Of a stretch of 64,000 nt of DNA, positions 7,901 to 27,900 are shown piece after piece. The stretch comes from Rapana venosa (lineage: Eukaryota; Mollusca; Gastropoda; Neogastropoda; Muricidae), in NCBI GenBank assembly GCA_028751875.1, contig CM054140.1, forward strand, positions 19,784,064 to 19,848,063, written 5' to 3'. The translations under genes and the position numbers were made by a program. The notes beneath the pieces were generated by a model that ran no database searches, was not told the origin of the DNA, and saw nothing but the letters and a program-made list of their open reading frames with translations. How positions within the stretch are numbered: the first letter of the stretch is position 1; each line of letters starts with the position of its first letter.

Positions 7901-10900
7901 TTCTGCGTGCGTTCGCACACGGGGGCCTCAGTTTATAGCCTCACCCAAAGGACTTTTAGGGAGAGTGGAGTCTGCACTGGCGATAACTCCAGGGGCAAAA
8001 TATCCCCCTTGAACGGGAATCAAACCCGGGTCGTCAAACTGCGAGCACAACGTTCTAACCACTAGGCTATCAAGGCACTGAGCAACTTAAAAGATGATCT
8101 GAACCTCCTAATAGAAAAAAACCCAACAAAAAACAACAAAAAACCACCCAGACTGACTTCTCCGTCAGGCCCCCAGATGGTGATCTGGTTGCGGGCGTTG
8201 TTCTGCAGCAGGAAAGTCTCCTGCATGTCGGAGGCGTAGTTCACTGCGTCCCTGATCCAGTTGCCCAGCAGGAAGTGGCGGTCCGAGGCCAGCAGTGTCT
8301 CCATGTCCGTCAGCAGGTCTACCATCTTCCCTCCGGCCAGTCTGTCACAGCGCAGCGCAGAATATTGTTGTTGTTGTTGTCGTCGTTGTCGTTGTTGTTG
8401 TTGAATGATTGTGTTCTCAAGTTTAACCCCCCCTCCCCCTTAGGTTCTTTCTTTGATTTAATGTCCATTCACTTAAGGTGATATTAGATGAAAGATTAAG
8501 TGTTAACGATATGTAGAGAACGTGTGTGTGTGTGTGTGTGTGTGCACTTGTGTATGTTTGTTTGTGAGTGCACGTGTGTGTGTGTGTGAATGTGTGTGTA
8601 TATGCATGAGTGTGTGCGTGCTTGCGTGCATGTGAGTATGTTTGTGCGTGTGTGCGCATGTCTTTGTTTGTATGTGTGTGTGAGTGTGTGTGTTTATTTA
8701 GGTGTGCTTGCAAGAATGTGAGTAGACATACATTTGCGAGCTAAGGTAGAGGTGTGCGTGCGTGCATGTGTGTGTGTGTGAGTGTCTGTGTTTACCCATT
8801 AGTGTTTGTGCACAAAATAAAAAAAAAAAATACAAAGAAATTATGGGAGGGACGGGGGTGGGGTGGGGTTTGGGGTGGGGGGGCACTGAACAGCTTAAAC
8901 TGCAGCAAGAACAATCACAAAAGTTTGCCAACAGAACACCACCCTAGGTGTTACCCACAATATGCACTCTGTCTCACGCATCAGTGAATCTGAGGTGCAT
9001 ATTCTGTCTGCAAAGATGACAAACATCCTTTACGATCTTGCCTTGCCATTTACCCTGAAATCAACTTTAAGAAGGAAGGTGGCAGGATGGTTGAGACGTT
9101 TGCCTGCCAACAAATAAACCATGACGTTCTGGGTTCCACTCCCAGCGCCTCACCCTTTCTTCCCAGTTTGATGAAAATATGGAAGTGAATGTCAGTCCTT
9201 TAGATGAGACTATAAACTGAGGCCCCGTGTGCGAATGCACGCAGAACATCTTGTGCACACGTTAAATCCTGTTCCGCTTTTCGTAAGAGTAGGCCATTGT
9301 GTGCCGGTGGGAACGGATTACAAAATTTACAAAACCGCAACACACACACGGGGACTGGATGTAAAAAAGCACATAAGTGCTTATTCCATTATCCTTGATA
9401 TAAAAGAATAAAATAAAATAAATAAATAAAATAAACAGATGACAATATTAAAAAAAATGCATGGACGCAGGTGTCATGTTTAGACATGATCCCCGAATTT
9501 GGAATGCAGCTACCTAAATGTTACGGGGGGGGGGGAGGAATTGTCACATATGCAAAAATCTCACCAATGAAAAAAACCCAACAAACCCACCCACCCCCCT
9601 ACCCCCAAAATCTATTTTGTACTAAAATTGCACATCATCATAAAAATCCTGAAATGCTATTCAACTTCCTCTTCACGCCACTTACTGGACCCCAATTGTG
9701 TCGTTGATCTCGAAAGCCTCCATGATTTCCGTGTACAGGCGCAGGGACACGATCTGCAGACTGTTGCGAGTCACATCCACAAGGTCGTAGCTGAAAACAG
9801 CACCAAGCAAGGTGGTCACTGGATAAAGCAAGGTGGTCACTGGATAAAGCAAGGTGGTCACTGGATAAAGCAAGGTCATCACTGGATAAAGCAAGGTCGT
9901 CACTGGATAAAGCAAGGTCGTCACTGGATAAAGCAAGGTCATCACTGGATATAAAGCAAGGTCGTCACTGGATAAAGCAAGGTCATCACTGGATAAAGCA
10001 AGGTCATCACTGGATAAAGCAAGGTCGTCACTGGATAAAGCAAGGTCATCACTGGATAAAGCAAGGTCATCACTGGATAAAGCAAGGTCATCACTGGATA
10101 AAGCAAGGTCGTCACTGAGTGACCACACTTCACTGATGGTGGCTTTGATAGACAGGAGGAATAAAGCTAATTGGTTAACATTTGCACAAAACCTTTTTTC
10201 CCCAGTCAAGCTGAGCTAATACTTTTTCATATACAAGTTTAGAACAGACAAAAAGAGATGAAAAGCAGGAGGACACAGACAAATCATAGTTACATATTAG
10301 ATAAATAGATATTTTCTCTCTCTCTCTGTGTCCTTGATGTATGCACGCGTGCGCGCGCTCCCACATAAACACACGTGCAACTTTTACTTCAAATTTCTAT
10401 TTTACTGGAACCACCATCCCCACAATGCACAATACCATCACAATCACCATGATTACATCCATTATCACCATAATTCATCCAATACCAGATTCCACCACCA
10501 CCGCCATAATACAGCCATCATCACCGTAATACAACCACCATCACCATACACACATTACAATCACCATATACACATTACAATCACCATACACACATTACAA
10601 TCACCATCACCACACACACATTACAACCACCATCATCATACACACATTACAATCACCATCACCACACACACATTACGTAAAATCACCATCACCATAATGC
10701 ACATCACCATCACCATAACAAAGGGTACATGCTCAAAGTGACACAGCCTGTGGACTAGCCACAATCATGATATACAAGTTACACCCACCATCACCATAAT
10801 GCACATCACCATCACCATAATGCACATCACCATCACCATAATGCACATCACCATCACCATAATGCACATTACCATCACCATCACACAGGCTACATGCTCA

Positions 10901-13900
10901 ACGTGACACGGCCTGTGGACTCACTAGTAGAGGTCGTTGGGTTTGAACTGGCTGGCTCCCTGAATCAGGTTATCCCAGGCAGCTAGGAGCTCGTTGGGGT
11001 CGTACCACAGCTGAAAGGACACAGGCACTAAAGTCAACTAACTAACTACACGTACAGCTATCACTGTTACAAAGGACACAGACACTGCAGTCAACTAACT
11101 ACATGTACAGCTATCGCTGTTGCACACGTCTTCCTATTTCATTCAAGAAAAATTCTCTGTTTAATTTCCTTTATGAAAGAACATAAAAGTTTGTGTGTGT
11201 GTGTGTTTTCTTAAAAAAAAGTTTTAATATCAGTTCTGTAACAGGAGTACGGTTTTTCATGACCTGTTTCTTCATGAAAATGTAATTCTCCAAGTTTTCA
11301 TATGCTATGATTTTACGACTGGATATTGACTACTTAGCAAATTCAAGAAAAATAGCATTGTTCTACATTAAAATTAAATACAATATGAAACAATAATGGG
11401 TAAAATAATATCAAAAGTATATTCATGCATTTATGTCATAAATTGTGACTATTTCATTAAAAAAGCAACAAAACTATTGAAATAATCAACTTTCTTCTGT
11501 CGCATAACCATCATCAATAAAAATGAAAACAAATTTAAGAAAAAAAAAACTTATGCAAAGTTCACATTGAAGATAAAAATCACAAGTTTTATCACATTTT
11601 CAAATTAGCACAAACTACTTGCATTAGTGTTATAGAAAGCTAAATCTAGTCAACCTACAACAAGTTTGCACAAAACTATTCAAAATACAGACACTTGAAA
11701 AAGTAAATTGAACAGAAATGTTGGGACATTCTTGATTTCTATTTCCTATTTTTTTTTCTTCCAATGGCACAAGATTGCTTTTTATCACATTATCAAATCA
11801 GCTTCAATGTAATTTACAAAGTCTATTGCATTATCAAATCAGCTTTAATGTAATTTACAAAGTCTATTGCATTATCAAATCAGCTCTAATACAAAGTCTT
11901 CCACATTATCAAATCAGTTCTAATCTAAAGCAAAGTCAAATTTAACATGCCTACCAAGCTTGCATAATTTTCAAGAATCAGAAATCACAGCTTTGATAGA
12001 TTATTATGTAAAACAAACAAACAAACAAACAAAACTACTACATCTAAACACAAATAATTACAAGAGATTTTTGCTGTTTGTTTTTTTAAGCTACAAGGAA
12101 TTTATTTCAGATTTATAAATGGTGCTTTGAGCTATGTTGATTCCACCAGTAAAGATGAATTATCTGTAAACAAAAGCAAAAATTTTATACTTGGATATGA
12201 AAAGTAGAGTGGGCTAACATGAATACTTTCATGTGCTGATCAAGTTTTTCAAGAAAATTTTGATAAAAAAAAAGCTATTTCCTTGTAGCTAAAAAAAAAT
12301 TCCAATAAAAGTTTTCCAGCATAGTCTGTGCAGTAGTTCACATAAATGCTTTGATTTGTGTTTGCAAGATATAGCACTATATAAATTCCATTTATTATTA
12401 TTTTATTATTAACAAATGTATCTGAGTTGGATATTATGCAAAAGATACTTTTAACTACACATTTTGATTTCATCACAGCTATCTCCATTAAAAAGAAACA
12501 AATCTATTTGTACACAAATAACACACAACAGAAAACACCAAGGACAAAGCAAAAAAAAAAAAAAGGTAACAGCAACAATTATAACAATGTAACAGATTTA
12601 GAAGCAGCAGAGCAGGCAGAGGCACAGGAAGGAACATATAATTATAATTGATAAAGATACATAATTAATTAATTATATAGACTACACAAATAAAGAAAAT
12701 AAGAGCAAAACCAAAAAAAAGCCCTAAACCATTAATAATCAGAAAAAAGGTTGCAAAATAAGACACTGCAATACTGAAATAAAGCATGATCAAGAAAAGA
12801 AAGGTCCACTAGCTTCTATACTGTGAGCAGCATGCATATATTAGAAATAATATATGGAAGCGATGTTAAACAATGACCATTTTAAAAATGATCGTCTCTG
12901 TGCTGTTTCTCTCTCTCTCTCTCCTCATGCACGCACACATGCGTGCAGACAAACACAATCTCTCTCTCTCTCTCTCACACACACACACTCGCATTAACAC
13001 ACACACACTCGCACTAACACACACACACTTCCACCTGGTAAATTTCCATAAATAAAACATCTATTTTCCACCAATCTTTAAGTATTCTTTATTTCATTTT
13101 TTTCCCATTTATTTTCCACTTTAAGTCACGAGATTTCTCTTTGTGAAATTCGGGCTGCTCTCCCTGGAGAGAGCGTGTCACCACAAGAACAGCGCCACCC
13201 TTTTTTTTTTGGGTCTGCAACTGTATTTGTTTCCCTATAAGAGTGGCTTTTTTTCTAAGAATTTTGCCAGGGACAACTCTCTTGTTGCCGTGGGTTCTTT
13301 TACATGCGCAGAATAATTTTGTGTAACATACGGGACCTTGGTTTATTGTCTCATCCAAAAGACTAGCGCCCAGACCACTACTCATGATCTAATGGATAGG
13401 GGAAAAGTTTCGGGCCCAAACGGATTCAAACCACCGCACACTTCCGACCTGGACTTTTTCGCTTTCTAGACAGGCACGTTACCTCTAGACCACCGATCCA
13501 CCAAAGTCTTCTAATTGTCTCTTCTAAGAGAGGTGCATTTGCATTCCTATAAGAAAAAATAAAGTTTTAAAAGACTTCTGCTATATTTCCATCATCTTAC
13601 ATTCATACTTGCAGTACTAAGTCTGATAACACTTCTCTGTTCTTTGTCACTACTTGAACTATTTCTATCATCTGCTGATAATTAACTGTACTTAACTTTT
13701 CTGCTGGATAAATGAGAGTTGAATAAAAGACATATTTTCTGCCAAACTTTCGAAGGTTTTAGCCTTTTTTCTTTTATATACTAAAAATGCATGTACATAT
13801 CTACTACATGATTAAAGTCCTACGAAATTATCCATTGATACTTAATTTATTTTTTAAATGAAATGCTCTCATACATTTATAAGAGGAAGGAGTCAAAGGA

Positions 13901-16235
13901 GAAGAAAGAAAATGAAAGCCAACTACAGGATGGTTTTTGTTCTGTGGTTTTGTTGCTGTTGTTGTTGTTGTTGTATTAGAACAATTTTTTAATTATTACA
14001 TAGTTATTAGCTCAGAAAGTCTATCAACAAATTATGAATAACTTTACAGATACGGTTTTTTAAAACACACACATACACACACACATGCACACACGCGTGC
14101 ACACACACACACTGATCATGTTAAAATGATAAGCAGAGTAGAGCATACCCTCATACAAGTATCAAAAGCCACAAAAGCAAAAAAACAAACAGCTTAAGCT
14201 GTAAACACTACAACTATAGTCATGCACCACCCCCACCCCCACAAAAACAAAACAACAACAAGAAGAAGCCCCACCACCACCACCGATAATGGCAATATAA
14301 ATCACTGCTTTCTCCAAAGCCATGTCATTTTCTCCTCACAAACCACACCCAAATAATCCTCAAGCCACCCATGCCTCACTTAAAAAAAAGAAAGTTCAAG
14401 TTTTGGATTGTTCTGAGGAATAAAAATATTTTTTTTACACCTTGTCTTTTGTGATCTACCCATTCTTCCCACATGGCTCATCCCTTTCTGACTGTTCTAG
14501 CCATACCCAGGCTCATTATAAGGTAAATAAAAATTCTGGGATGTTGTCCCCTCTCTCCTTCTCCCTTTTCTTTTGTTACGATTTGTTTATTTTTATAAAA
14601 AGCTGCAATCACCACTATATTTTGGAATAACTTAAAGCTTGCAACATAAATTCTGCAGCTGACTTTTTCTATTGTTGTTATGATTTTTAAAATATGTTGC
14701 TTTTTTTTTTTTTTAGTCACTTTTCTTACTTCAGTTTATTTCATCATTCGCATAAGTTTCTTCACCATCACTAATCAGTATGTGTTTAGTAAAAAAGAAC
14801 TAAAAGAGCACATAAATTCAAATTACTATTAGAATAACCTTCCTTTTTTCTTTTTTTTAGATACAAAACCTAAAGGCAAGAGGCAAAAAGCAAATTTAGA
14901 ATATGAGAAAAAGGGGGACTGAAGTATAAAAATGACAGAAAAAAAGAAAAACAAAGGGTAAAAGTGGGGGGTGGGGGGGGTGGGTTGAAGATGATCAGCA
15001 ATAGGAAAAGAAGAAAGCAAAAAAATAAAAATGGGGAGTATGCTTGGTTGAGTGGGTGGGTGGTGGAGGGAGGGGGAGGGGGAAAGTACAAAGCTGGATA
15101 AGTGGAGGGGTGGGAAAACACAGATTACATACATGCAACCAAGTCTCGTTTCATGAGTGCAGGTTCTATTATATTCACCTTTTCTCCCCATAACTTCATT
15201 AACGTAGTCAAAATGAAATGAACTAAAAATGTGTGTCATGTTAAGACACCAACCCGTAAGTTGGAATATGGATACCTAAATGCGAGGAGGGGGGGGGTGG
15301 GTGGGGGGGGGGGTGGGGATGGAACTGTCGCACACACAAAAATCTCACCCTCGGAGCTCTAGCCAAGGAACGAAAAAAAAATCTCTTTAACAGCTTATAA
15401 AAAAATGGATAAATTTCCTATCTCTTGTTGTAGGGAAAAGAAAGTTATATGTGTACTTTTCGCATTAATGAAGTATTTATTTCTGAAAGCTAATAAAAGC
15501 AAGTGATCATCAAACGAAATGAAGGAAATTAATATTTTCAGAGATTTAAAAAAAAAAAAAAAAGAAAAAAAAAAGGAAGAATTAAAAAAAAACGTGACTA
15601 ACACGCATATATGTAAACACATGCAGACACCGACCTTCTTCATCTAAAAAACAACAACCCAACCCCCAAAACCCAGCCACAGATTACAAAATCAAGACAA
15701 AACTACCCCCAAAGCTCCGCTACAAACTTACATCAGAATGATTATTATAGTCTGTCCGGGGTCTCCTAGTCAGCAGCACAAAGTCAAAATCGGTGTGGCC
15801 CGTGTGGCAGTTATACACACTCGACTACAAAAACACAGACAAGGACAAAGGAAAGCACGTTACCGGGGAAAACAGCTGGCCAAACCCAAGACAGCTCGCT
15901 CACTCACGTCGTTCAGAATGTTATAGTACATCCGAGGGCGCTCCGTGATCAGGGTATAGTCGTTGTCATGGTGGGAGTCCGTGCAATTATACACACTGAA
16001 CTATACCGTGGGCCGGGGAAAAGAAACATGTCAGAATGTAAAAAAAAAGAGGTTCAGAATATCTCTTTCCTGTTGAAATCATAAACCAAATTCAGAATTA
16101 AAAAAGGGATTCAGAATATCTCTTTCCTGTAGAAATCATGACAATGACAAATTCTTTTATTTCGAGGATAATGAATAAGCACCCATGTGCTTTTTTACAT
16201 CCCGTCCCCGCCCTTACGATATATATATAAGAGAG

Positions 16236-16273
<38 letters not shown>

Positions 16274-19200
16274 TAGAGAGAGAGAAGATGTGTGTGTGTG
16301 TGTGTGTGTGTTGGGGTGGAATTGAACCTAAGACTGTTCATGTTTTTTGTCCACCTGCTGGTCTAAAACCCACATATAAACACACATCATAAACCCACTT
16401 GTGGGTCATTATTTTCACCATATTCTTTCCCTGTTAAAATCACATCCAAATTGTGATTCATGTTTTATGTTCACTGGGTCATGTGTCCAAAATGACTCTT
16501 TCCTGTTAAAATCACATCCAATTTGCGAGTCATATTTTGGGTTTGTTTTATTATCTTCCCAGAATTTCATTTCCTGTTGATTTCAATGCCCTGCACAGAC
16601 AGATGTTCACAGGGTGTGTCAGCTGCACACATCGTGGACAAAATGAAGTTTGCCCTAGAGAACAATGATGCTGATGCTGTGTTAGGAATGCATTCCATTC
16701 CATATTGTTTACAGCCCTACTGACCGTGAAAAACCTAGCAGGGCGCGGTAATAGGAAACAAATACACTAAAAACAGCAACAGATGATGGATCTTTATGAT
16801 GGATACTTCTGCGTATGTTACCATAATCATGAATAAACAAAGCCTACACCTGGTCCATTGTATGTGTGTGTGTGTGTAGGGGGAGTGCAACACAAACAAA
16901 ACAACAGCATCAGCAAACCTCTTGATACCTCTTCTCTCACCCATGAATTAAACCATAAAAAGAAAAAATACATTCAAAAATACAAAACAAAACCCCCAAC
17001 TCAAATATCCCCCCTCCAAAACTTACCCCTTAGGGAAAAAAAATCCCCTCTAAAAGGATCCTTGCTTATTACTGTATGTATGGAATGTTTAGTCTCCTCC
17101 TGCCTGTTCTTATATTACAGTCCCATAGATTTGTGTTTATTTCTTATATTGACCAAAAATCCCTTCTAAGGTGTGCCAAGACTTGCAACAGAAAGTGAAC
17201 AGCAAAATACAGATATATCAACTTTGATCACCACGCGACATTTATGTCTGATTTCTGACACAGATAGAAATCTGTCATTTGTGAGAAAGGATAAGATACC
17301 CCATAGATATCTCAATGAATGATCATTAACTATTTCTTTAGGTTTTTACGGAACACTTTCGCTGCTTACTGAACGACTCTCGTAGTAGCTTTGGGAAAGC
17401 AGTGACTTTTTGAAGGAATGAAAAGAAACTGGACAAAACCACAGCTATGCATACATAAACATCTAACAGCCATGATGCTTTCACAAGAAAGGTGTTAGCT
17501 GGCAGTATCTATAGTCAAGTTAGTGTACTACAATGAAACAGGTCCTTTTGAATTATCAGCCCGGAACAGATGAAGACACACACACAAAATGGACAAGCCT
17601 GGCAGCAGGTAACCAAACCAATTAAACAATTTTGAACATCCACAGTCAAATTTTAAAGTCTTGCATGAATTCCTTACTTTCTCGAAAAAAACCAAAAGAG
17701 TAAGCATCATACTCTTTGCGTTCAAAACAAAGTTTTCATTTCCAAACTGAAAAGAGGATGTAAAATTCCAACGTCTGACAAAGCCTGTCCACGGTGAAGC
17801 TAGTCATGCTTGGAGGACGGCATGAGCATACACACACACAGAGCAGAACACAGAAACCCTGATCACAGCACTCCAGTCTTTACCGGCACTTTGACATGGC
17901 GATTGACAGAAGGCCTTTTGACAAACCCTGTTTTACCATGGAAGCGTCGAGTGCCATTGTATTTGTAGACGCTGCCCTGCTCAACAGGGACAAAAACCAC
18001 CACCACCTGCTGAAACCTTCATCTTCAACACTCCAATGCAAAAGAAGGTTTGGAGTTTTGTCTAAGAGCTTGCACAATGCCAAAATGGCCCGACTTGACT
18101 CGACCCTACCCCCTAACTCCTTGAGAAATCACTGGGACACAGCACTGATCTTTTCAGGCAATGTGGTGTGGGTAATTTGAACCTGGTGAAGCCCATCTCT
18201 CTCCAGGTAGCAGGATGCATGCTGGGTATGCCTGTGTCATCCATCCATGTCTGGTCAATTCTTGTAAGAAAAGTGGATGGGGTTTTAACATGTGTACAAG
18301 TGTTCACACACAGAACCTTGGTTTACAGTCTCATCTGAAGAACTTTCTGGAGAGTGGAGTCAGCACCACTGTTAACTCCTCGTGTAAAATCCCCTTGAAC
18401 TGACGCCACAGCAGAAACACAACTGCACCTTGAAATGCAATTTGACCAGGAGTTTGACACTCTTAACAAAAACAAGGCCACCCTACTCCCTTTCCTACAG
18501 AACCACACATCAATTTGATGAACCTTGTTCAAGAACTCAAACCATGATACTTTACAGGCTATTTATTATCTGTTAAGACATTGAGGCTGTGAATGGTAAA
18601 ATCTAAGATGACAGCTAGGTTCTGAAGAAAAGTAGTCACAGATGTTTGAAAGATGCATAACAACTATTCTAACATACATCAGACAATAAGAAATTTGACA
18701 AATGAGCTCTACTCTGAGCCATGAATCGGTAAAAAACAACAACTTCACATCCAACATCCTTTACCCAATTGCTCGATGAAAAATCAATAAGCAATGAACA
18801 CTGCAACAGCTGTCTGCACAATTTGTCATACAGGAGACTATTTCAGCAGGTCAATGTCTGATCTTGCTGAAGGCACAAGATTTTGAGGTAGTCACTGAAC
18901 CTAACATGAAAAAAAAAGCAGCAAACAAAAGATACTTCACATAAATATCTGCAAGGACTTAAATTGCACATGCAAGAATGCACACACCCACACACTGTTT
19001 GTCCATTTCAGTCTATCCATTTTTTGTTCTTTCTTTAAGATACTACTCAAAAGGGAGGGATGTTGAAATGAAAATGAACCTTTTTAAAACTCAATCACTG
19101 AAAAAAAGGGTCGTTAAATAATGAGTCTGATATATGCATACTTTATGCGGATGGTACCTAAGCAGCTGACAAACCCTGTGATACATCGTGGCACTGGACA

Positions 19201-19538
19201 ATGGCTCTGTGTAGACACTGTGCACTCAGTTGCAAGTATATTTTCTATTCAACAGCAACACTTAACATCTGTTGTCTCAGATGGGCACATTTATTCACTT
19301 GGCAAATGCAAGGACACATATTTAACATCTCTGTAGTACATAAATGCTTACTCAGCTCTTAGTTTCTTTCCTATAGGTGTTCAAACACAGGTGTACGTAC
19401 TCATAAATACATGAAAGCATACAGACACAGACATACACACACAGATGCACACACACATAAATATACACACACACACCACTTTAAAACCATGAGTATGCAC
19501 AGACACTCTCTCTTTCTTCTCTCTCACTCTCTCTCACC

Positions 19539-19604
<66 letters not shown>

Positions 19605-19939
19605 ATGCATCCATACATACATGGACATCCACACAGACACAAGCACACACACCATACCTTCAACAGCTGCCATGCTAAATCAATCTGAGGACTTGTGAAG
19701 CCATATCTCTTCTTAGGGTATTCAGAAATCCTGAAAGAAAAAAAAAGACCACCTTTATTTTTACTGCCATGTTCTGTATACTCAATTACAAAGCAATGCA
19801 CTCAAAAGCTTCCACCAAATCTTATTCTAAAAGCATATGGAAACAAACTAATAACCATTTGAAAAGAAAGATTTGAAGAAAGAAAACATAAAGACTAAAA
19901 AGGCTGGTCAGGATTTTACTACGAACCTCCCCCCCCCAA

Positions 19940-19973
<34 letters not shown>

Positions 19974-21948
19974 GCCATCAGTTTCCCCCACTTTCAGTTT
20001 CTCTCAGCTCTTATCCATTCCATCCCATCCCAGCCGGTGCTAATTATTGACAGTACTTGGACTTAAAAAAAGGAAGGGGTACATATGCTTAATTCAGCAT
20101 CAAGCCCTGGACCCTTGCCTGAGCTCACAGCATGAAAATCAGGCCTCAGTCAGGGGCCCAGTGCTAAAATTAGTGCCCTCCTTCATGTTCCCAAATCCCA
20201 AGTGTGGTCAGTTCCTGTAGCACCAGCTGGGATGGGATGGGATGGATAGCAGCTGAGAGTAGCTGAAAGTGGGGGAAACTGACACCTGTGCAAGTTATGA
20301 TGGATTTATTTATTGATAATTTATATATTTATTCATTTATTTATTTATATCAAGGATAATGGAATAGTCAAGTCAAAAACACTTTAATCATCCCATGAAG
20401 GGCAATTACAAGCACTCATGTACTTTTTTTTTTATACATCCAGTCCCCGGGTGTACACGGTTTTGTAAATTTTGTCACCTGTTCCCACCAGCACACAATA
20501 GCACTGTGCCCCCTCTTCCTCCTAAACTGCGCACCCTTACCCCCCCAAAACCCAACAAAAGTGCCTGCAGCTACAAGTGTCCTGTCTGTCTGTCTGTCTG
20601 TCTGTCTGTCTGACTGACGGACAAGTCGACACGCCTGAAGGGCTGCTCACCAGGCGGTGATGTTGCGCGGCTCGGGGATCCAGGCGCTCTCCATCATGAA
20701 CTCGTACATGACCTCGTTCTGGAAGATGCCTTCCATGGTCAGCCCCAGGCCCACCATGGTCGAGTTCTTCATGAAGCTCCGCCCAAAACTGGGACCCTGC
20801 ACACACGCACGTGTATACATAACTGCGTACGCACGGAGACTGGATGTAAAAAAAAAAAGCACAATGAGTGCTTACTCCGTTATCCTCGAAATAAAAGAAT
20901 AAAATGGAAATGCACATACAAACAACCAAAACACACACACAGAGTGACACATATACACACACACATGCGCGCACACACACACACACGCACTTATATATAT
21001 AGAGACACTGGTACAAATTTATGCTGGAGTGCATGCACTATCCACACTTACATACATGCATGTAAACGCTTGAACACATGCACACACGCACTCAACATTT
21101 TGTCAAATATCACTTTTTGTGAAGAGATGTAAAACTGAAGACCACACACACACACTCCCCCCCCCCCCTCCCCCCCCCCCCCCCCCCCCACACACACACA
21201 CAAGAGTGACACACGCACACACAAAGTGACATACACACACAGACACACCCTGTGTGCAAACGCACACAGAACATCTTGCGCACACGTTAATTCCTGTTCC
21301 GCTTTTCGTAAGAGTAGGCCATTGTGTGCCGGTGGGAACAGATGACAGGATTTACAAAACTGCATACACACGGGGACTGGTTGTAAAAAAAAAAAAAAAA
21401 GCACATGAGTGCTTATTCCATTATCGTCGAAATAAAAAAAAATAATGAATAAATAAATAAATAAATAACACACACTCACACTCAACCACCCACCAAACCC
21501 ACCCCACCCCCTACACACACATACATACTCACCCACACAACAAAAACAAACCCACCTTCCCACATACCCACCCCACAAACACAGAGAGACTTACCCACCG
21601 ACCCACACTTCTCCCCCCCCCCCCTCCCCCCCACACACAGTGACACAGACACACACAGCCAGCCAGACAGACACACAGACAGACAGCCAGCAGCCAGTGA
21701 CGGACCACGTTGACGTTGTCCAGGGCCCCGTACAGCTCCATGGTTCCCCCGAAGTTGTGCAGCATGCACCAGATGAAGGGCTGCCCAAAGTAGGAGCTGG
21801 TCCGCAGGTACTGAGGCTCCATCTCCGACATCAGGTCCAGGATCAGCATCCGGCCCTGTCACCAGCAGCATCAGCGTCATTGTCGTCGTCATCGTTATCG
21901 TCATTTTATCATATTGTTGTTTTAAGCTATTTCCCTTGTTGATTTAAT

Positions 21949-22013
<65 letters not shown>

Positions 22014-24916: not shown

Positions 24917-27900
24917 TAGCGCCCAGACCACCACTCATGGTCTAATGGATGGGGGAAAAGTTTCGGGTCCAAACGGAATTCGAACCACCACACACTTCCG
25001 ACCCGGACTTTTCGCTTTCTAGACCACCGGTCCACCAGCCATAACAAAACTCTTAGCAGGACAACCTGTATTTTTCAACAAAGGAGAAAAAAATCCTCTG
25101 AAGTTGGGAGTATGGTACTTGGAAAAAGCCATAAATCAAACATCTCATCAAGTGTGTACCTAGGTCTCACAGCTTGTGAATGACTCTCAGGGTGTTAAGC
25201 TGTAGAATGCCCAACATCTGATTTCCAGCTCTCCTAAGAGTTTCTTTCTTCTTCTGCCAGTCACATGTTGGAAAAAAACCCATACAGGATGAAGCAGGAT
25301 GGACATCGGTTATATTGCTGGTTTTATCCCTAATCTTCACAATGAAGGACGTATTAAGGAGGGCAAGTCTAATTCAAACTAACTCGATAAAACTACTTTT
25401 CTGTAAAACATTCTTCCCAGTCCTTCAGATGAGACTATAAACCAAGGCTCTGTGTTCGAATGCATGCAGAACATCTTGCGCACACGTTAAATCCTGTTCC
25501 GCTTTTCGGAAGAGTAGGCCATTGTGGAAACAGATGACAAAATTTACAAAACTGCATACACACGGGGACTGGATGTAAAAAAGCAAATGAGTGCTTATTC
25601 CATTATCCTCGATATAAAAGAATAAATAAAATAAATAAATAAAGTTAAAACAATATTCAAGTGTTACCCTAGAAACAAGATGGATGAAATGTCTCAACAT
25701 CTGGATGAGATCATTTTTTATGTTGACTGACATAAACTGCTTACTTTGATCTTGGCGTCATCTCGTTGAAAGTGTCAGCATTGTAGACATGGTCTACTCC
25801 AAATTCACTGGCCATCTGAAATGATAGACAATAATGATGATAAACTATTTCTGTTTAGTATCCCCAAAGTGATATGTTCACACCTTTTGCACTAATATCC
25901 AAACATTATTCCCAGAGCACAAAATGTACATGTGCGCTCATGCACACTCACACATGCACACACACAACTACACAAGGGGGACAGGATAGCCTAGTGATCA
26001 GAACATTGCGCTCGCAATCTGACAACCCGGGTTTGATTCAAGGGGGATATTTTCCCCTTAAGTTAACATCAATGCAGACTCCCCTCTCCCCAAAAGTCCT
26101 TCGGATGAGACTATTAACCGAGGTCCCGTGTGCGAATGCACACAGAACATCTTGCGCACACGTTAAATCCTGTTCCGCTTTTCGAAAGAGTAGGCCATTG
26201 TGTGCCGGTGGGAACAGATGACAAAATTTACAAAACCGCATACACACAGGGACTGGATGTAAAAAAGCACACGAGTGCTTATTCCACTATCCTCGATATA
26301 AAAGAATAAATAAATAAATAAATAAACACAACACACATGAAAAACATACACAACTACACACACACACAAAAAACACACACTCACTCACTCACTTACACAC
26401 ACACACGTGCACGCGCGCATGGAGTAAAACTACTAACCAGCTGAATGAACTTGGACCCAATCACTTGAAACAGCGGGTCATTGAAGTCCAACAGGTATGT
26501 TCTGGCAAGAAAGGAAAACATCCAAAAATGACAGCAGAAACAAATAAACAAACAAGCAATCAGACAAGGAATCAAATGTGTGTGTGTGTACATGAGCGTG
26601 CAAGTGAGTGTGTGTGTCTGTGCATGTGTGTGTGTCTGTGCATGCGTTCCCCTGCATCTGCAGGCATGTGCATACGATTCATGATTCACATGAATAAACA
26701 CAAAGAACATCTATAAACTGATATTCCTGAGACTAAGCATGTAATTCCCCAGCCCTTTGTACACACTTACAGTGATAATAAAGACACTTGAAGCGTAACT
26801 GATACAGTCATTATACACATTTGTAAGCATGCACGTATGTGTGCACACAAACACACACATTCCATTACATGAGAATGTTTTTAAAGAGTTGTTTTTTTTC
26901 CCCAACTGTACACACTTACGCAGAATAGGTGGTGTTAAAACCTGCCCATGTTCCAAGCCTAGTGACGTTGGCCTCTGGATACAACCTGAAGAAAACACAC
27001 ACCACACCACACCCCACACAAAACACACACCACACACCACACACAACACACACACACACAACACACAAAACACACACACACACACACACACATCAGATAT
27101 CACGACAGAAAAAACTCTTTTCATATGAAAAAACCCAAAAAAATCCGTTGAGTTCTCCCCTTACATTCCAATTTTTCCTTCCCTTCTTTTCATTTCTTAT
27201 TTCTCTACTATCTTTTTTCCCCCCATCTCATGAGCACAAACTGACTGACTTGCACAATCATGGAAGATATAAACATAGGTGGGCTGAGAGAGCCAGAGGC
27301 AAAAGAGATGACCAAAAACGCACTTTCTATATATTTGATGCTGTCTTGTTTTCACAAAAATGAAATGAAGACACCATGACACAACAAGAAGACACACCTG
27401 GGACTGTTGAACAGCACAAAATATTCAGAGAAAGCAGCCACCTTTTCTAGCAAGACTTTTAATAATAATAATAATAATAATAATATATGGAATTTATATA
27501 GCGCTGAATCTTGTAAAGCAACAAATCAAAGTGCTCAGATGACCTTTTAAAATTTTTTTAATATATCGAGGATAATGGAATAAGCACTCATGTGCTTTTT
27601 TTCCCCATCCAGTCCCCGTGTGTATGCGGTTTTGTAAATTTTGTCATCTGTTCCCACCGGCACACAATGGCCTACACTTTTAGCCCAAGGCAGCTTGCAC
27701 TCCGGGGCAACCAGGCTGCATCCACATCCCACTTACTGGATGCTCCTCTGCTGAAGCAGTTTTATCACTGATGTTTCCACAGAAAAGGAGATACATTATA
27801 CATGCATGGCATATTCTCATGTAATGCAGCACTCCCAAAAATTCTGATCTATCCATACGTCAATGGATCAAAACCCCATGTCGAGTTTTACATGTCTTCC

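What the first reader, a model, noticed from the sequence alone, without database searches (positions are those of the whole stretch)
15732..16000. Two tandem, same-length, same-phase versions of NAGLU exon 16, probably mutually exclusive
Exons 16a (15908-16000) and 16b (15732-15824) each have 93 nt, phase 0/0 and proper splice sites. They are about half identical in protein (16 of 31 residues by my alignment), and both align with the human SVYNC segment. The intron between them is only 83 nt. The best branch-point candidate (ggtaacg) is about 48 nt from the 16a donor, close to the lower limit for splicing. Such steric crowding is a known cause of mutually exclusive splicing, as in alpha-tropomyosin. 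I know of no described alternative exon pair in a NAGLU gene.
Basis: partly seen in the sequence, partly recalled or inferred. Interest (0 to 1): 0.88.

Follow-up and report, generated by a model that had tools for sequence, protein, structure and literature searches.

The report
Three swappable exons in snail NAGLU
A snail gene for the sugar-cutting enzyme NAGLU carries three interchangeable versions of one small exon, each encoding a different loop beside the enzyme's active site, so one gene can probably make enzymes with different sugar-binding pockets.

Summary
In detail: 16a (16000-15908) and 16b (15824-15732) are 93-nt, phase 0/0 exons of a minus-strand NAGLU (GH89) gene, 16 of 31 residues identical, 83 nt apart. 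Mussel isoforms show the swap elsewhere: nine from Mytilus trossulus and M. californianus, all 780 aa, differ only in two segments, and this exon is one. The third version is 48-84% identical to snail, limpet, abalone and chiton segments, but 19-29% to 16a/16b. The segment is a modelled loop between two helices, opposite human active-site residues R510, H512, R519 and a bacterial specificity loop. Best reading: mutually exclusive splicing that retunes the substrate cleft. Three conserved versions are well supported, exclusivity is likely, altered specificity is inferred. Steric crowding (branch point 48 nt from the donor) can separate only 16a from 16b. No RNA and no DNA of relatives could be examined; five relatives' models join copies in tandem.

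The parts
   Evidence: (E 1.6e-16 to Nucella segment)
15908..16000 (-). alternative exon 16a (type B), 93 nt, phase 0/0; lowest-scoring acceptor of the 20 scored (-0.4), ordinary donor
15825..15907 (-). 83-nt intron between 16a and 16b; single branch-point candidate TAAC with A at position 48 (about 15860)
15732..15824 (-). alternative exon 16b (type B), 93 nt, phase 0/0; strong acceptor (score 11.3)
10925..11010 (-). downstream constitutive exon 17, starts phase 0 with [12 protein letters not shown] (human IWYNRSDVFEAW)
26920..26985 (-). exon 7, single copy here; its counterpart (human W268/H270 segment) is the second alternative segment in Mytilus isoforms and the only one differing between two Ostrea edulis isoforms

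Best explanation
The gene carries a cluster of three alternative exons (A at 17976-17884, 16a, 16b), of which one is normally spliced between the flanking exons. Each encodes a 31-residue loop between two helices of the C-terminal domain that borders the GH89 active-site cleft. Choosing one version swaps the charge, glycosylation site and side chains of that loop, and so most likely changes which glycan fits beyond the terminal alpha-GlcNAc. Shown: three same-length, same-phase exons; conservation of the versions in relatives; same-length isoform models in mussels. Inferred: that each version is used in this species, that 16a and 16b exclude each other by steric crowding of the 83-nt intron, that A is chosen by a separate regulated mechanism, and that the change is one of substrate preference.
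For: Sequence and frame. Isoforms: Mytilus trossulus X1-X4 and M. californianus X1-X5, all 780 aa, show no difference outside two segments (each compared with one reference of its species); four versions of this segment occur among the nine. Versions are older than the species: A is 0.84 identical to Nucella A, 0.68 to Littorina, 0.48 to Patella, Haliotis, Lottia and chiton, but 0.19 and 0.29 to 16a and 16b in its own gene; 16b is 0.74 identical to a Babylonia version and 0.71 to Nucella B, against 0.52 to 16a. Constraint: 16a versus 16b dN 0.51, dS 2.19 (near saturation; dS not computable against A). Active-site position: the exon lies opposite human residues 499-528, including R510, H512 and R519, named as active-site cleft residues in PMC6789092, and Ala508, a predicted GlcNAc contact in PMC12938346; and opposite CpGH89 residues 653-689, including the 680-686 loop with W685 that PMC8225759 describes as key to substrate recognition. 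AlphaFold models of a type A (Littorina) and a type B (Babylonia) protein keep the NAGLU fold (4xwh, TM normalised by target 0.94 and 0.92), with this segment as an irregular loop between helices 493-504 and 539-555, or 496-510 and 542-558. Net charges +8, -3, -1 and sequon positions differ. 48 nt from donor to branch point is under the 50-bp criterion for steric interference used in PMC5740500.
Against: No RNA could be examined, so no junction is shown for this species. Five of the 155 relatives' proteins contain two or three copies in tandem (P0001, P0017, P0047, P0054, P0065; motif scan); some of these may be real double inclusions, and double inclusion would keep the frame. The 16a acceptor scores lowest of the 20 acceptors. 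Database isoforms are predicted models whose read support I could not check. In CpGH89, deleting the loop raised activity on one heparan-type substrate only twofold, so the loop may matter less than supposed. Model confidence in the loop is moderate (10-residue block means 57-90). The chiton segment is as close to Haliotis B as to the window's A (0.48 each), so its place in type A rests mainly on its FHGK..RRP motif.
Confidence: 0.78

Rival explanations
1. The copies are cassette exons that are often included together, giving a longer loop rather than a choice of loops.
For: Five of 155 relatives' proteins carry tandem copies, one with three. All exons are 93 nt, so the frame is kept, and the segment is a loop in the models, which might tolerate extra length.
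Against: The nine Mytilus trossulus and M. californianus isoforms are all 780 aa and carry one version each; the motif scan found no tandem copy in the other 150 of 155 proteins; the 83-nt intron has its only branch-point candidate 48 nt from the donor. Tandem models may be prediction artefacts.
Confidence: 0.12
2. One or two of the copies are dead duplicates; the gene has recent decaying duplicates elsewhere.
For: Exon 6 has three upstream partial copies at 88-99% DNA identity, the farthest with an in-frame stop, so local duplication happens here. The 16a acceptor is weak.
Against: All three frames are open with splice sites; 16a and 16b are old, not recent, copies (52 of 93 bases shared); A-like segments occur from chiton to Nucella; 16a is 0.55-0.58 identical to its closest Pomacea, Batillaria and Babylonia versions, 16b 0.71-0.74 to Nucella B and Babylonia B1.
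Confidence: 0.07
3. The versions are spliced alternatively, but the choice tunes stability, glycosylation or routing (lysosome versus secretion), not substrate preference.
For: The N-glycosylation sequon moves between versions (NGT, NCT, NHS). The human counterpart holds glycosylation sites N503 and N526.
Against: The segment spans residues named as lining the active-site cleft, and the second alternative segment in Mytilus and Ostrea also lies at an active-site wall, human W268/H270.
Confidence: 0.3

Closest known systems
coq-2 mutually exclusive exons 6a/6e in helminths, annelids and molluscs (PMC7434440)
   Same: Mutually exclusive exons in one gene of an enzyme; the swap remodels the region by the active site and switches the product made (passages read).
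   Different: A polyprenyltransferase with two versions, tested by exon deletion in C. elegans; here a glycosidase, three versions, no experiment.
Short-intron steric mutual exclusion
   Same: 16a and 16b are separated by an 83-nt intron with a branch point 48 nt from the donor, under the 50-bp limit used there.
   Different: It covers only 16a versus 16b; exon A is 1883 nt away.
NAGLU / GH89 alpha-N-acetylglucosaminidase (human 4XWH, Clostridium perfringens CpGH89 2VC9)
   Same: Sequence, fold and the motifs of both catalytic glutamates are kept.
   Different: The human segment is part of one large exon 6 coding residues 341-743, so it cannot be swapped by exon choice; among bacterial enzymes the loop differs between proteins instead.
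Dscam-type multi-cluster alternative exons
   Same: Mussel NAGLU has two alternative segments used in different combinations.
   Different: Few versions, an enzyme rather than a receptor, no selector RNA structures shown. Comparison recalled; only abstracts in a search listing were seen.

Membership tests
Mutually exclusive exon cluster | homologous exons of similar length and same phase in one interval between two constitutive exons | tested here: met
   three exons of 93 nt, phase 0/0, between 19658 and 11010; 16a and 16b clearly homologous; A resembles them weakly by identity (0.19, 0.29) but its relatives align to the same protein segment
Mutually exclusive exon cluster | each version joined to both flanking exons in transcripts | not testable with these tools
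   no RNA data; in mussels, same-length isoform models carry single versions
Mutually exclusive exon cluster | versions not joined to each other | tested here: inconclusive
   motif scan of 155 relatives' proteins: 5 carry two or three copies, none found in the other 150
Steric short-intron exclusion | donor to branch point under 50 nt in the intron between versions | tested here: met
   48 nt for 16a-16b by pattern match, not by mapping; does not apply to A-16a, 1883 nt
U2/U12 splice-site incompatibility | mixed splice-site types | tested here: not met
   all three donors are GT with sequence like this gene's other donors, acceptors AG
Exclusion by frame shift and decay | exon length not a multiple of three | tested here: not met
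   all 93 nt
Selector/docking RNA structure | conserved competing base pairings | not tested
   needs DNA of relatives; no Rfam match at gathering threshold in 9000-22000
GH89 NAGLU | sequence match along the enzyme and catalytic glutamates (human E316, E446) | tested here: met
   E 3e-199 to 4xwh over 610 residues; FNEM and MEGIFQNE motifs in the joined frame and in three relatives

The most novel reading that the evidence does not exclude
Molluscs diversify one lysosomal or digestive glycosidase by splicing: alternative exons rebuild one wall of the NAGLU cleft in snails and two walls, combinatorially, in mussels, so that a single gene yields a set of alpha-GlcNAc hydrolases for different glycans. 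Type A, basic and human-like in its R-x-H-x6-[KR]-R-P pattern, would serve heparan-type chains; the neutral or acidic type B forms, with tyrosines after the RP motif, would serve other alpha-GlcNAc glycans such as mucins or dietary polysaccharides. Types A and B have been kept since before the gastropod lineages split.
Probability: 0.4. Interest if true: 0.8.

Novelty: new member of a known kind. Interest (0 to 1): 0.64.

Why it matters
NAGLU is the enzyme lost in Sanfilippo syndrome B and is usually thought of as a single fixed enzyme. A natural series of loop swaps next to its active site, kept over deep time in molluscs, would be a ready-made experiment on what sets substrate choice in GH89. 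It would also be a case, beside coq-2, of splicing used to change what an enzyme acts on. The cluster also offers a test of how exclusivity is enforced when only one of its two inner introns is short.

Tried and rejected
Search for more copies: a scan of in-frame AG..GT stretches of 75-117 nt between 19657 and 11011 gave no fourth SVY-type exon. Search for a second alternative cluster in the window: only one copy of exon 7 between 28286 and 26502. Further clusters from duplicated exon 6 and exon 4 pieces: rejected, as these are recent partial copies, one with a stop. U12 splice sites and frame-shift exclusion: rejected. Looping-out of exon A by (GT)n at 19602-19541 and (CA)n at 16310-16289: possible, but such tracts are common (14 GT and 9 CA tracts of eight or more units in 64 kb on the sense strand), so not pursued. 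A region search with type A (47 residues) returned only the Nucella protein. The PDB search with 16b alone returned nothing. A search from Lingula added 35 proteins, none with tandem copies by the motif scan. One apparent tandem hit, P0003, is a false match of the pattern and is not counted among the five; the pattern can also miss copies. In one search the segment-cutting pattern failed and only printed stretches before a fallback motif were used, so the segments were cut again by alignment; there the cut for P0017 lost its first copy, which searches show. The window's own genome could not be searched: the genome search was unanswered. The protein lists are capped: searches show the best 120 of 3298 and of 4254 hits.

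Model caveat: in the joined protein used as query, exon 12 ends at AAC; the Nucella protein indicates three more bases (one V), so its end is nearer 21706. The joined protein lacks the N-terminal exons and the last exons, which were located separately; the signal-peptide exon rests on a weak match (E 0.003).

Full report
What the window holds. The minus strand carries a nearly complete gene for alpha-N-acetylglucosaminidase (NAGLU, GH89), from a probable signal-peptide exon near 35.7 kb (weak match) to a last exon near 1.6 kb. Eighteen exons from 33167 to 4566, with one version of exon 16, join into one open frame of 619 residues. It matches human NAGLU 4XWH with E = 3e-199 and is closest to proteins of neogastropod snails: Nucella lapillus 81% and Babylonia areolata 82% identical (taxonomy). 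The source is therefore very likely a caenogastropod snail.

Checking the finding. 16a and 16b are present exactly as described: 93 nt each, phase 0/0, 16 of 31 residues identical, 83-nt intron. That intron is exceptional: the other 18 of 19 introns measured are 418 to 4721 nt. The only match to the branch-point patterns tried has its A 48 nt from the donor and 35 nt from the 3' end. Splice sites were scored against this gene's own constitutive sites: the 16b acceptor is strong (11.3), A is middling (5.1), 16a lowest of the 20 (-0.4); the donors of all three are ordinary (3.9 to 6.9).

A third version. The Nucella protein model contains two SVY segments in tandem. Searching the window with the first found a third 93-nt, phase 0/0 exon at 17976-17884, between the upstream constitutive exon and 16a. 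I call it type A. No fourth copy was found by the same scan.

Relatives. The segment was cut from 120 related proteins by alignment. Mytilus trossulus X1-X4 and M. californianus X1-X5 are all 780 aa; compared with one reference of each species they differ only in two segments: the exon 16 segment, in four versions (SVYNSTAG.., SVYNDTDHL.., SV[YF]NNTDGL.., SVFNDTDRM..), and a segment that corresponds to exon 7 here, in three versions. The versions of the two segments occur in different combinations. Three 789-aa M. galloprovincialis isoforms behave alike, and Ostrea edulis isoforms X1 and X2 differ only in the exon 7 segment. The window has one copy of exon 7. Of the 155 proteins fetched (the best 120 of each list), a motif scan finds two or three copies of the exon 16 segment in tandem in five, all molluscs: Nucella, Haliotis asinina, Ruditapes, Mercenaria and Pinctada. 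These are either double inclusions or prediction errors; I cannot tell which.

Age and selection. Type A of the window is 0.84 identical to Nucella A, 0.68 to Littorina, and 0.48 to Patella, Haliotis, Lottia and the chiton Liolophura, but 0.19 to 16a and 0.29 to 16b; its best match among type B segments of other species is 0.35. So the split of A from B is older than these gastropod lineages. The chiton segment is equally close to Haliotis B (0.48) and is placed in type A by its FHGK..RRP motif, so a chiton-age origin is not settled. 16b is 0.71-0.74 identical to Nucella B and Babylonia B1 and 0.52 to 16a, so the split of 16a from 16b is older than the divergence from these two snails. 16a is 0.55-0.58 identical to its closest Pomacea, Batillaria and Babylonia versions and 16b 0.48-0.52 to the Pomacea and Batillaria ones, too close to 0.52 to date the split further. 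dN 0.51 against dS 2.19 between 16a and 16b is compatible with constraint on both, though dS is near saturation. These are 29-31-residue comparisons; I built no tree.

What the exon encodes. In AlphaFold models of the Littorina protein (type A) and one Babylonia protein (type B), both with the NAGLU fold, the segment is a loop between two long helices, modelled with moderate confidence (10-residue block means 57-90). By the alignments, renumbered and checked on catalytic residues (human E316 and E446, Clostridium perfringens E601), it lies opposite human residues 499-528 and C. perfringens residues 653-689. PMC6789092 (passages) lists R510, H512 and R519 among important active-site residues in the cleft between domains II and III. 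PMC13207710 (passages) reports docking contacts with R514, R519 and N526, and PMC12938346 (passages) a docking contact of the substrate GlcNAc with Ala508; these are docking, not solved complexes. PMC8225759 (passages) describes the C. perfringens loop 680-686 with W685 as important for recognising its GlcNAc-alpha-1,4-Gal substrate and absent from the human enzyme; deleting it raised activity on a heparan-type substrate twofold. The second alternative segment of mussels lies opposite human W268 and H270, which PMC12938346 also lists as predicted contacts. Both swapped segments therefore appear to border the substrate cleft.

What changes. Net charge of the segment is +8 in A, -3 in 16a and -1 in 16b. 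The N-glycosylation sequon sits at NGT, NCT or NHS respectively. Type A keeps the human pattern R-x-H-x6-[KR]-R-P; by position from the RP motif, 16a has E where human has R519 and 16b has R (sequence). The R and P of that motif are invariant in the 32 proteins aligned; of the others, at least P0029, P0041, P0048, P0049 and P0071 have LP.

How it most likely works. The splicing machinery picks one of three exons. 16a and 16b cannot easily both be used because the branch point for 16b is within 50 nt of the 16a donor, the criterion for steric interference used in the human catalogue PMC5740500 (passages). The limit in molluscs may be lower, so this is inference. Exon A is 1883 nt upstream of 16a, all donors look like this gene's others, and the frame is kept in any combination, so its exclusion must come from regulation or RNA structure, which I could not test. 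The weak 16a acceptor next to a strong 16b acceptor suggests that 16b is the default of the pair and 16a the regulated form; this is inference. The likely result is a set of NAGLU enzymes with different walls beyond the catalytic pocket.

What is known. coq-2 in helminths, annelids and molluscs is the closest precedent: exclusive exons remodel the region near the active site and switch what is made (PMC7434440, passages). My searches for NAGLU or N-acetylglucosaminidase together with mutually exclusive exons, molluscs or splicing returned no paper whose title or abstract start treats such an exon in NAGLU (listings only, with 20 of 23 papers listed and 20 of 204). The held library lacks most subscription papers. 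NCBI-sourced isoform records of mussels already show the swap, so the raw fact sits in public annotation.

Limits. No transcript evidence for this species, no genomic DNA from relatives, no coordinates for distances, and isoform models whose read support I could not see.

Noticed in passing
window 28838-28501 (minus strand): Three partial tandem copies of the first ~72 nt of NAGLU exon 6 lie just upstream of it, 88-99% identical, the farthest with an in-frame stop; they may carry decoy acceptors.
   Followed up: partly
window about 31050-30900 (minus strand): Degenerate copies of the 3' end of exon 4 and its donor region (..[10 protein letters not shown]) repeated in the following intron.
   Followed up: no
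Mytilus isoforms among P0022-P0081; P0027/P0040 (Ostrea edulis): A second alternative segment in bivalve NAGLU, opposite human W268/H270, used in different combinations with the exon 16 segment; two Mytilus coruscus models join parts of two copies (P0077, P0081).
   Followed up: partly
P0002 and P0003 (Babylonia areolata): Two NAGLU proteins listed from a contig of the same length, about 80-86% identical with differences spread over their whole length, so probably paralogous genes on one chromosome rather than isoforms.
   Followed up: no
P0056, P0058 (Haliotis): A second, divergent Haliotis NAGLU with a shortened exon 16 segment (24 residues).
   Followed up: no
P0123 (Dimorphilus gyrociliatus): Gene model fusing NAGLU with a zwilch domain (PF09817); perhaps a prediction joining two neighbouring genes.
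   Followed up: no
window 19602-19541 and 16310-16289 (minus strand): Long (GT)n and (CA)n tracts flank exon A in the pre-mRNA and could pair to loop it out; such tracts are common in the window.
   Followed up: partly
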